Shown piece by piece: positions 32,560 to 57,030 of a DNA stretch of 64,000 bases (positions are counted from its first letter, which is position 1; every line of letters begins with the position of its first letter). The translations under genes were made by a program, and so were the position numbers. Source of the DNA: Entoloma clypeatum (taxonomy: Eukaryota > Basidiomycota > Agaricomycetes > Agaricales > Entolomataceae); the NCBI GenBank assembly GCA_963565915.1, contig OY751495.1:1798001-1862000 (forward strand), read 5' to 3'. Under the pieces are notes generated by a model. The model was given only the letters and a program-made list of their open reading frames with translations. It did no database searches and was not told the origin of the DNA.

Positions 32560-34038
32560 ATGGACCCTTCGACGTCGTCGCCACAAAAGAAACCTATAGC
32601 CATCATCACAATAGGGATGGCAGGCGCTGGTAAATCAACGTTTGTTCAACGAATCAACTCGTATCTACATTCTCTCGATCCGCCCTCGCCTCCATACATT
32701 CTCAACCTTGATCCTGCGGTAACCCACGTTCCTTTCGAGCCCAACATAGACATACGGGACACCGTCAATTATGCAGAGGTTATGAAGCAGTGTGTAATTT
32801 GGCATCTCTTTTCTGCAGCTAGTAACAACCCGTTTTGTAATGAAGATACAACTTAGGGCCGAACGGGGGCATCTTGACTTCTCTTAACCTTTTCACCACA
32901 AAATTCGACCAAGTCCTTGATTTGATAGAGAAGAGGTCGGATGCTCACGAGTGAGTTTCTTCACTCTCGTTTCCGCTCAAGACCTTATCAACGACGTCCA
33001 GCTATGTTATTCTGGACACCCCCGGACAGATTGAAATATTCACCTGGTCGGCTTCGGGGGCAATCATCACGGATGCTGTTGCATCATCGATGCCCGCCGT
33101 CGTCGCGTACATAATCGATACACCTCGAACTACAGCGCCAGCCACATTCATGTCGAATATGCTTTATGCATGCAGGCAAGTTATCTAAACATGTCTTGAT
33201 ATTTGTATCATTGCTGATCGCTCGCATTTACAGCATCCTATACAAAACGAAGCTCCCCTTCATCCTAGTGTTCAACAAGATAGACGTTCAACCTCACAAC
33301 TTCGCCCTTGATTGGATGCAGGACTTTGAGGAATTTCAGGCAGCTTTAGCTTCACATAGTGGCACAAGAGACGCTGAGGGTGAACCGACATATATGAACA
33401 GTCTCATGAATAGTATGAGTTTGGTTCTGGATGAGTTTTACAAGCACCTCAAGGTCAGCAATCCAACGATTCCTCTTGTTCCGTAACACTTATAATTTCG
33501 TCCGCCAGACGGTTGGTGTGTCGAGTATGACTGGAGATGGTATCCAACAGTTTTTCGAGGCAGTTGGAGCATCGAGAGCTGAATACGAAAAGTGACGCCG
33601 GCGTCTCGGAGAATATGTTTCACCGCTGATCTGCTTTGCCCTCAGAGACTACCTTCCTGAATTGGAACGCGTTCGGGCATTGCGCGCAAAGTCTTTGGAA
33701 GATGCTAAGCAGGATTCGATGAGCAGGTTGATGGAAGACCTTGCTGTTGATCGCGAGAAAAATCCTCAGGGTGCACTACTGGATCGGTGGGATCCAGAAG
33801 ACGAAGAAGACGAAGAAGGCGACGATGATACGGACATCAGTCTTGTAGATCGAAGTGAGTTTCCTAGATCTGATCATGATTTGAGCCGGTTGGATACAAT
33901 CCTCTATGGCTGTGCATTTTCAACTGCCATGCTGATCGCTCTTCGTCAGGTGAGGAACCATGGCCTGGGCAATATATAGATGTCAGTCGTGCTCAAAGGC
34001 ATGGAGACGAAGGCATCAACTGGCCAAGGCCTGGCTGA
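32560..34038 (+). CDS. GPN1: GPN-loop GTPase 1 (Npa3/XAB1), intact copy
   Basis: ATG 32560; P-loop GMAGAGKST at 32614. After a 56-nt intron (32790-32845) comes the family-defining GPN loop (YNLGPNGG). Then YVILDTPGQIEIFTW, the switch/Walker B region, and the G4 motif FNKID near 33278. One intron (33176-33233) uses a GC donor (GCAAGT). The helical insert and acidic C-terminal tail follow, and a last exon gives EEPWPGQYIDVSRAQ and WPRPG before TGA 34036-34038, as in fungal GPN1 C-termini. GPN1/Npa3 is an essential cytosolic GTPase needed for assembly and nuclear import of RNA polymerase II. A 5'-truncated duplicate lies at 51.4-52.7 kb. Confidence 0.92.
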
Positions 34039-34510
34039 GTGTTACATACGTCGACCATATAGTTGTCTATATGGGACGGCCAGATACTTTCTCGAGAGAA
34101 TTGCCAGCGCTCTCGTGTGCAACTGGCTAAATGGAAGGTATTTTGTGTTCTAAATCCTCCTGTGACTTGCAGTAATGTTACATTGAGGCCTCTTCTATTA
34201 CATACAGTTGCTCGTTGCCCAATCCAAATCGAATTATGTCGTATGTTTTGCCCTGTGTCCTTCTTATCGACTCCTCCTACAGCACTGTTGCTTGAATCAT
34301 TGAGCCATGGCTACTATGTTCTTTCCAATACGTTATAAGTCACTGACATCAGGGACATCTCCTAGTCGAAGGTCGAGTAAAGCCGCTGACATGGACAGGA
34401 GAAATGCAAGGTGTCTTGACGATAATCAATAGCCGTCAGGGCTAGCTTTTTATTGGCATAAATCAAATCTATCAAATGCGCGGGTCTGCGGCAGGACGTC
34501 CTTGGACGGG

Positions 34511-34518
34511 TATTTAAG
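34511..34518 (+). promoter_or_regulatory. TATA-like box upstream of CDK1 copy A
   Basis: TATTTAAG lies about 100 bp before the first ATG (34614) of the CDK1 copy; the same sequence stands at 53139-53146 before copy B. It lies about 470 bp downstream of the GPN1 stop. No mapping data support it. Confidence 0.4.
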
Positions 34519-34613
34519 CGCTGTGCTCCTCATACACCTACCCACCCTGGAGTTCCATTTTTTCACTCCGCCAGTGTTAAACGCGGTCCAGTACATTGTG
34601 TCGCTTTCAAGTA

Positions 34614-54805: not shown

Positions 54806-55859
54806 ATCAGAAGCACCGGACCGTACCCCGATCCTTTCGTAAGGATAACTCGCTGCGGCTGACAGGCACATCATATCATAATAAGGATGATCAATCTGTT
54901 CAATCATATGTATTGATTGGTCAATCGAGTGCTTGGACTCATGCACGATAAGTATGTGGTATTGAAGCCGCATACTTCTCCATGTGGACCCGACCCTGCG
55001 AATGACCTGATTGCTTTAGGACGTATGTATCACGATCTTAAACGATAAGTAAGTACGGCCAACCGTGGTTCCAACGGACGGCGTGCTAGCTTACTTGGGC
55101 TTCATGAAGCGGCTGCCGCTTCCCGTTATATGGAAGTCTACGTTCGCACCCGGGCTGATAACCATTTTTCTTTTGAATTGCTTACAGCCATCGGATTGGA
55201 ACTAATGGTCTTGTGACTTATCGATCATCTTACACTGTCAGCCCACTTCAAGTTCGGCCTCTCTCATATCTTGGAGGACAACCACAGACTGCTTGACTGC
55301 AGTTCCTCTTCTCTCTCTCGTTTGTTTCCCGCTGGAATACCATTGGGCCTCTCCCGTCTGATCGTCCCCGTCTTCTCTTGATCTGGCTCCATATCCTTTC
55401 GGTACATTGCATCGCCTTTGGTCTCGCGAGGATCGGTCGGCCCAAAGAATTGCATGAGACTTCTCTCTTCCCTTGTCTACGCATGTTGATCGATGGTCGT
55501 GTTCTCCTATTTTTATTCACTCGAGAATCAGGTTTGGCTATATGAAAGAATCAAAACTTTCATGATGCGCTTTCGAGCCCGCTGTCCTGGTCGTCTATGC
55601 GTGGGACAATGAATTCATCTTGGGCTGGCCTCGTTGCTCATGACAAACGCGTCACGATCGGCGACGATTCCCATGCCCCATAGTTAAAAAGCACTGCCCA
55701 CCACAATATACGACCCCCCCTTTCTTCCTTTCTTCCTTTTGCTCCCCCTCCAAACCCGAAATCTTATCCACAGAATATATCACCATTCACCCGCGTATCT
55801 ATGGCGTTAACTCTGGTTCCAGCACTAATGTTGAACGTACAGTTATCCTCTGCTTCCCC
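54806..55859. other. intergenic, 1.05 kb, nothing recognised
   Basis: Part of the block missing from copy A. Contains pyrimidine-rich stretches (55300-55350, 55710-55750) that may belong to the promoter of the following kinase. No gene or repeat seen. Confidence 0.45.
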
Positions 55860-56958
55860 ATGGTTTCCGCAGTTATTAATATACTGCTCCAGGCTCTCGT
55901 TCAAACAGACAGTTGTCGGATGTACAGTACCTTGTACAAAGCACCTTCCCCGATCTTTCTTCTACCTCTGGCATTAGGAGCACCACTTCCGGATTTTGTC
56001 GCTGTCAAATCTGCCCGTGTACGACCTAAGGAATCGTCAATCTCTTATGCCCGCAGCGTAAGTATCCCACTTCCCCGCTACCCGCCTTACTTGCGCCCCC
56101 TTAGTCTATCGAGGCTTTTTTGCAAGGCCATGAGAGGCTGCGCCATCCAAATGTTCTGCCTTTCCTGGGCTATATCATCCTGGACGACATCCAACCCTCT
56201 CTATTGTCGCCTTTCTGTGGCAACGGCAATATAGTAGCATTTCTCGATCGCCATCCGGAGGCTGATAGAGTGAAATTTGTGAGTTCTCATATTCTGGCTG
56301 TCGAACGTCGTGCTTACACCAAGTTCGTACGCCCGCTAGCTTGTGGACGCCTTTCAGGCAGTTTGTTACCTGCATGAACATGAAGTCGCTCACAAGAATA
56401 TCATACCAGTATGTGCCAGTGCTCTCATATGCTATATTAGATTCCACACAGTGCTCCAGGGCAATATCTTGATAAACGACCGCGGAGAAGCATGCTTGTC
56501 CGACCTGGGCGTCTCCGATCTCCTGCGTGGAGTTTCTCCTGTTCCTGAGGGCCGAATACCTGATTCATGGATCTATAAGCCATCGGAGGAACTGGCCGGC
56601 GCCGATAGCCCGTTTAGCCTCTCGATGTGGTTTAAGATAGATGTCTACTCTTTGACGAGCACTGTATACGAAGTAAGCGACTTCACTTGATCCCTTGCTT
56701 GGTGCCGAGCGCTAAAATTGGCGTAAGGTCCTCTCTGGAGAGCGTCCCGTCCCACCTTCTAGGAATCAGTGTCTGAGTCAGAGACCCATTCCCATCATTC
56801 TTACCATCATCACCAGCGGCCATGTTGACATCCCACGCCCACAATCTATCAGCCGTCCGGTATGGCAGGCCATCCGGCTCGGTTGGAGGCGTGACCCCGA
56901 GCTACGCCCGTCCATTGTTGACTTTGCAGAAGCATTCTCCCAATCGCTGAGTTTGTAA
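55860..56958 (+). CDS. TKL-type protein kinase, atypical catalytic loop
   Basis: ATG 55860 or 55920. The beta-3 Lys is in DFVAVKSARV (about 56000). After a short intron: ERLRHPNVLPFLGY, NGNIVAFLDRHPEADRV. Next exons: FQAVCYLHEHEVAHKN, GNILINDRGEACLSDLG, IYKPSEEL...MWFKIDVYSLTSTVYE, and a last exon with VWQAIRLGWRRDPELRPSIVDF, ending at TAA 56956-56958. The order is the TKL fold expanded in Agaricomycetes. The catalytic HRD/HGD motif reads HKN (no Asp) and DFG reads DLG, so catalysis is doubtful and a pseudokinase is possible. Exon borders near 56290-56345 and 56412-56450 are by eye. Homologous debris is in copy A at 35.7-36.2 kb. Confidence 0.65.
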
Positions 56959-57030
56959 TTTCCAGTTCATGGGGTCATGATCACCCGTTTTAAATTTATT
57001 TCATGTCGTTGCACCTGCTGGTTGGACTGC

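What the first reader, a model, noticed from the sequence alone, without database searches (positions are those of the whole stretch)
32790..57030. Reciprocally truncated duplicates: intact GPN1 in copy A, complete CDK1 in copy B
The two copies of an ancestral GPN1-CDK1-TKL kinase segment, 18.6 kb apart, have each lost the part the other keeps. Copy A has full GPN1 and broken CDK1; copy B has full-length CDK1 and kinase and broken GPN1. Two essential genes have thus been separated by about 19 kb of inserted genes and transposons while each keeps one functional locus.
Basis: partly seen in the sequence, partly recalled or inferred. Interest (0 to 1): 0.75.

Follow-up and report, generated by a model that had tools for sequence, protein, structure and literature searches.

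The report
Leftover CDK1 copies beside intact GPN1
In a mushroom genome a short stretch holding two essential genes was copied and each copy lost a different part; one gene (GPN1) survives here, but the cell-cycle gene CDK1 probably works from another chromosome, since both copies left here carry an early stop signal.

Summary
The duplication is real: 32795-36226 (A) and about 51413-57021 (B) are homologous. A has intact GPN1 and a CDK1 cut in exon 7 by a 2.06 kb deletion with 4-bp microhomology. B lacks GPN1 exon 1 (with the P-loop); its 5' limit is the end of a dispersed solo-LTR-like repeat.

"Each copy keeps one essential gene" holds for GPN1 only: A is the one intact GPN1 found in the 60 Mb assembly. 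CDK1 in B has all ten exons, but codon 3 is TAG in both A and B. An intact CDK1 with the same exon structure lies on contig C12; it groups with relatives' CDK1, while the window copy is the longest branch, and none of the 120 listed homologues is closer to it than to C12.

GPN1-CDK1 adjacency looks ancestral (20 of 23 species with both hits show equal contig lengths; one has consecutive tags, another a fused model). So this appears to be an old CDK1 site, superseded by C12.

A and B are a mosaic: one mismatch in about 2.17 kb, about 87% identity in the 3' part. Best reading: recent gene conversion between old duplicates. The parts are ordinary; the combination merits RNA-seq and a strain survey.

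The parts
32560..34038 (+). GPN1, copy A: intact, 7 exons (32560-32789, 32846-32950, 33002-33175, 33234-33453, 33509-33591, 33646-33854, 33950-34038), 369 aa
   Evidence: Model without stops, introns GT or GC to AG; Pfam PF03029 9e-77; 86% to Collybia nuda and Hypsizygus GPN1; only intact GPN1 among the own-genome matches
34614..35679 (+). CDK1, copy A: exons 1 to part of 7, TAG at codon 3, then cut
   Evidence: Same first exon as B; alignment to B ends at 35679
35676..35681 (+). Deletion junction in A: 2.06 kb present in B (about 54304-56364) is missing; 4-bp shared TGTT
35680..36226 (+). Remnant of the kinase gene, copy A
   Evidence: 86-87% to the matching part of 56364-57021
33474..35644 (+). 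Core almost identical to 52102-54272 in B (one mismatch, at 34156): inferred gene-conversion tract
   Evidence: Longest run without a difference 1489 bp; 0 of 10,000 shuffles of 81 difference positions reach it
49882..51254 (.). Terminal-inverted-repeat element upstream of B, with a helix-turn-helix ORF on the minus strand (50780-51187)
   Evidence: 80-nt inverted arms, 81% complementary; HTH_23 2.4e-8; one near full-length copy (95%) and several partial ones (78-97%) on other contigs
51255..51411 (+). Dispersed solo-LTR-like repeat (start approximate); its 3' end lies one base before the GPN1 intron-1 donor and is the 5' limit of B
   Evidence: 40 further matches, 20 of them fetched; 6 of 13 scored copies have matching 4-bp flanks; junction read by eye
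51413..52666 (+). GPN1, copy B: no exon 1, stop in exon 2, exons 3-7 open
53242..54805 (+). CDK1, copy B: ten exons including an 8-nt first exon and a 6-nt microexon; codon 3 is TAG (53248-53249 + 53303); otherwise open
   Evidence: exon lengths equal to C12 CDK1 except the last (50 v 47 nt); Pfam PF00069 1.3e-71 for the part from exon 2 on
56105..57021 (+). Kinase gene, 3' part, copy B
   Evidence: Pfam PF07714 3.9e-15 on pieced exons

Best explanation
This is an old GPN1-CDK1 neighbourhood of an agaric (best GPN1 hits: Collybia, Hypsizygus, Lyophyllum) in which CDK1 has been superseded by a duplicate on another contig. Steps: (1) CDK1 was copied as DNA, introns included, to C12 (inferred); (2) the C12 copy took over while the copy beside GPN1 changed faster (rates shown, takeover inferred); (3) the GPN1-CDK1-kinase segment was itself duplicated locally (shown; order relative to 1 and 2 unknown); (4) B lost GPN1 exon 1 at a solo-LTR-like element, and A lost 2.06 kb from CDK1 into the kinase gene, probably by microhomology end joining (breakpoints shown, processes inferred); (5) recent gene conversion made about 2.17 kb of A and B nearly identical, so both share the TAG at codon 3 of CDK1 (mosaic shown, process inferred). 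Present state, inferred: GPN1 works from copy A, CDK1 from C12, copy B is a relic.
For: Same ten-exon structure of window and C12 CDK1, with the 8-nt and 6-nt exons. TAG at codon 3 in both window copies, CGC in C12. C12 CDK1 groups with five-row Lyophyllaceae/own clade at 97/79 and with Tricholoma outside it; window copy has the longest end branch, 0.74 v median 0.12. Private changes window v C12: 33 v 10 (Hypsizygus as third row), 36 v 9 (Tricholoma), window higher with all 9 outgroups tried. Window CDK1 departs from 7 of 155 otherwise invariant columns, the most of 37 rows, including APE to APD. 0 of the 120 listed homologues (of 6,842 matches) is closer to window CDK1 than to C12. Sisterhood of the two is not rejected and has log-likelihood 2.87 higher than the free tree (AU p 0.568). 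Adjacency: 20 of 23 species named in both listings have equal contig lengths (hand count); tags HGRIS_010629/010630; fused model P0123. Control gene COQ8 v GPN1: 0 of 47 species (hand count). GPN1 intact only in A. Mosaic divergence.
Against: Apart from codon 3 the window CDK1 is open with nine usable introns, and its difference from C12 is conservative (dN 0.127, synonymous sites saturated, pS 0.825), so it was under selection for most of its history and may still be used with another first exon: three candidates passed my filter. Two other rows also have long branches (Hysterangium 0.61, Mycena 0.58), the support 97/79 misses the star limit, and the window copy's place is unsure. Mycena departs from 5 of 160 invariant columns, so 7 of 155 is not extreme. 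With Stereum the rate excess is 24 v 13, chi2 3.3. Sisterhood is only not rejected; a wider clade of nine rows is not rejected either (p 0.552). Adjacency was read from contig lengths, tags and one fused model, not from DNA; 3 of 23 species (Pleurotus djamor, Coprinopsis cinerea, Lentinula edodes) do not match. The new upstream neighbour of A (COQ8) means that the old site has itself been rearranged. No reads, no RNA.
Confidence: 0.67

Rival explanations
1. Copy B encodes a working second CDK: an alternative first exon bypasses the TAG, and the protein is a fast-evolving, specialised CDK1 paralogue.
For: Conserved frame and conservative divergence; P-loop, PSTAIRE, HRD and DFG motifs kept; three alternative ATG-donor combinations give an in-frame start. 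Specialised CDK1 paralogues are reported in Oikopleura (PMC8832800, start of abstract in the listing).
Against: The homologous first exon is recognisable and carries the stop; 0 of 120 listed homologues closer to it than to C12; APE to APD and six other departures from invariant columns.
Confidence: 0.2
2. One reading: GPN1 in A and CDK1 in B are the cell's only functional copies, about 19 kb apart.
For: The GPN1 half holds.
Against: TAG at codon 3 and an intact CDK1 on C12.
Confidence: 0.04
3. Assembly artefact: two haplotypes or repeat units joined in one contig.
For: No read evidence was available.
Against: Divergence changes sharply within the copies (0 to 26 substitutions per 200 bp), each copy has its own breakpoints and flanks, a third decayed GPN1 copy lies nearby, and the contig is 4.1 Mb of a 20-contig assembly.
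Confidence: 0.04
4. Variant of step 5 only: the near-identical core is a recent second duplication or double crossover, not gene conversion between old duplicates. (This can be true together with the best explanation.)
For: One genome cannot tell these apart by sequence alone.
Against: Homologous but diverged sequence continues on both sides of the core, as conversion predicts.
Confidence: 0.15

Closest known systems
Duplicated essential gene with a silenced ancestral copy: pTAC14 in Mimulus (PMC5896889; abstract and outline read)
   Same: Gene duplicated elsewhere, ancestral copy no longer working
   Different: There loss of expression and hybrid lethality were shown; here a stop codon and a partial deletion in one genome, no crosses, a fungus and CDK1
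Ectopic gene conversion in duplicated genes (PMC3924815; start of abstract in the listing)
   Same: Near-identical tract inside diverged paralogues
   Different: Here inferred from one genome, the tract covering the end of a living gene (GPN1) and a probably dead one (CDK1)
CDK1 paralogues of Oikopleura (PMC8832800; start of abstract in the listing)
   Same: Extra, diverging CDK1 copies
   Different: There specialised paralogues are reported; here the extra copy has an early stop

Membership tests
GPN1 (GPN-loop GTPase 1) | ATP_bind_1 domain with P-loop and GPN motif in an open frame | tested here: met
   Copy A: PF03029 9e-77, GMAGAGKST and LGPNGG in the model (motif names recalled). Copy B fails: no exon 1, stop in exon 2
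CDK1 / Cdc2 | Kinase domain with PSTAIRE, HRDLKPQN and DFG, closest to fungal CDK1 | tested here: met
   Window B: PF00069 1.3e-71, motifs in the model (names recalled); 75-82% to the 36 fungal CDK1 rows. Relationship only; its place in the tree is unsure
CDK1 / Cdc2 | Intact reading frame from the start codon | tested here: not met
   ATG GAT TAG in both copies; therefore filed as a CDK1 relic, not as the functional CDK1
Processed (retro) pseudogene | Introns absent | tested here: not met
   Nine introns in both the window copy B and the C12 copy
Gene conversion between paralogues | Tract of much higher identity than both flanks, flanks still homologous | tested here: met
   1 mismatch in 33474-35644 v 14 and 26 substitutions in the two full 200-bp bins after the deletion junction and 12 events in the first 200 bp
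Essential-gene relocation by duplication and loss | Ancestral site known, new site intact, old site not working | tested here: inconclusive
   Adjacency in relatives, intact C12 copy and stop at the old site; expression not testable here

The most novel reading that the evidence does not exclude
An essential cell-cycle kinase moved within one lineage from its conserved place beside GPN1 to another chromosome, and gene conversion spread the inactivating codon between the two copies left behind; strains at different steps of the move would, when crossed, give about a quarter of spores without CDK1, a live speciation-type incompatibility.
Probability: 0.2. Interest if true: 0.65.

Novelty: new member of a known kind. 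Interest (0 to 1): 0.36.

Why it matters
It corrects a natural misreading (the longest CDK1 copy here is probably not the working one) and gives a concrete, testable case of an essential gene changing place. GPN1-CDK1 adjacency appears in agarics and also in boletes, Stereum and polypores (orders from recall), so its breakdown here is informative, and a strain survey could catch the move in progress.

Tried and rejected
Rejected: B CDK1 as the sole functional CDK1 (stop at codon 3, intact C12 copy); retroposition (introns kept); a known RNA or tRNA at the boundary of B (0 Rfam matches at gathering scores; 0 tRNAs); COQ8 upstream of GPN1 as an ancestral neighbour (0 of 47 species share contig length, hand count). 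Which of A or B sits at the old site is not settled. Led nowhere: direction of conversion. At the 8 A/B difference sites covered by the third GPN1 copy, it agrees with B at 5, A at 2, neither at 1: too few. Searches of the held open-access library: CDK1+GPN1+synteny+fungi gave 0 papers; some searches gave general analogues only. In these five searches I saw no report of this locus; most papers of subscription journals are not held.

Confidence in the best explanation went from 0.68 to 0.67 after listing the other long branches.

Full report
What is there. The window is C14:1798001-1862000 of a 60.1 Mb, 20-contig assembly. Self-comparison shows a direct repeat, A 32795-35679 and B 51423-54307, 98.3% identical, with further homology at about 87% between 35680-36226 and 56364-57021. 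By eye the homology of B reaches back to 51413, the first base of GPN1 intron 1. Spliced models give an intact seven-exon GPN1 in A (369 aa) and a ten-exon CDK1 in B. GPN1 in B has no exon 1, a stop in exon 2 and open exons 3-7. CDK1 in A stops matching in exon 7, where a 2.06 kb deletion with a 4-bp overlap (TGTT) joins it to the end of a kinase gene.

The CDK1 in B is not complete in the sense that matters. An intact CDK1 on C12 (C12:1169318-1170789 by my model) has the same ten exons with equal lengths except the last (50 v 47 nt), down to an 8-nt first exon and a 6-nt microexon that codes for EG of the glycine loop. There codon 3 is CGC (MDRY); in both window copies it is TAG. The rest of B is open, with nine introns of GT-AG type. 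Three other upstream ATG-donor combinations passed a simple filter and could in principle give a start, so function is not excluded.

Which CDK1 is the working one. In a tree of 38 rows the C12 copy sits with four Lyophyllaceae rows (97/79, just short of the star limit), Tricholoma next to them; the window copy is the longest end branch (0.74, median 0.12; Hysterangium 0.61 and Mycena 0.58 are long too), its place unsure. Holding the two own copies together is not rejected and gives a higher likelihood than the free tree; a wider nine-row clade is not rejected either. The window copy has more private changes with all nine outgroups tried, from 36 v 9 (Tricholoma) to 24 v 13 (Stereum, chi2 3.3). 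It departs from 7 of 155 otherwise invariant columns; Mycena from 5 of 160, C12 from 2 of 157. None of the 120 listed homologues (of 6,842 matches) is closer to it than to C12. Between the two copies dN is 0.127 with synonymous sites saturated over 284 codons: inferred, an old duplication long under selection, with late inactivation.

Ancestral order. By hand from the two listings of 120, 23 species are named in both; in 20 the CDK1 and GPN1 records have the same longest-contig length, including contigs of only 73 and 112 kb; Pleurotus djamor, Coprinopsis cinerea and Lentinula edodes differ. Hohenbuehelia has consecutive tags for the two genes, and one Tephrocybe gene model (P0123) runs from a full GPN1 into CDK1. 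As a control, COQ8, which lies upstream of GPN1 in the window (ABC1 domain at 30686-31042), shares contig length with GPN1 in 0 of 47 species. So GPN1-CDK1 looks like the old pair and COQ8 a newer neighbour here.

History of the two copies. Differences between A and B are not spread evenly: 12 events in the first 200 bp, one mismatch from 33474 to 35644, then 9, 14 and 26 substitutions in successive 200-bp bins. The longest run without a difference, 1489 bp, was reached in 0 of 10,000 shuffles. Homology on both sides of the core points to gene conversion. A third GPN1 copy (C14:1927781-1928607, minus strand) is decayed, with several deletions, and 88-91% identical to A and B in shared ungapped columns. 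The 5' limit of B is the 3' end of a dispersed repeat with TGTG...CACA ends (40 further matches; 6 of 13 scored copies have matching 4-bp flanks), preceded by a terminal-inverted-repeat element. Of ten ORFs scanned, those between the copies with a Pfam match were a GDSL lipase, an arylamine N-acetyltransferase, a Cys/Met PLP enzyme (26.9 bits, just under the cut-off of 27) and the helix-turn-helix ORF.

Verdict. The pieces (segmental duplication, truncation at a mobile element, microhomology deletion, gene conversion, relocation of an essential gene) are all known kinds. The closest analogue seen is pTAC14 in Mimulus (PMC5896889, abstract and outline). Order of events, expression and the assembly itself remain untested.

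Noticed in passing
L008 5474-5479 and window 53389-53394: A 6-nt CDK1 microexon codes for EG of the glycine loop. Of 39 fetched CDK1 records, 4 lack just these two residues and 6 more have odd starts before the next exon, so public gene models seem to miss it at times.
   Followed up: partly
window 51255-51411: Dispersed repeat of about 195 bp when whole, TGTG...CACA, matching 4-bp flanks in 6 of 13 scored copies: a solo LTR or miniature LTR element by its looks.
   Followed up: partly
window 62341-64000: 98.2% match to L009 7000-8662, about 7 kb beyond the window: another recent local repeat.
   Followed up: no
C14:1927781-1928607 (minus): Third, decayed GPN1 copy, about 77 kb beyond GPN1 of copy B.
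   Followed up: partly
P0054 and P0089 (Galerina marginata): Two CDK1 records on contigs of different length in one strain: CDK1 duplication is not unique to this genome.
   Followed up: no
window 40119-40398 and 41728-42007: Identical 280-bp direct repeat 1.6 kb apart, the first overlapping the start of the GDSL lipase ORF.
   Followed up: no
window 36248-37525 and 37722-38186, minus strand: Long ORFs directly after copy A with no Pfam match.
   Followed up: no
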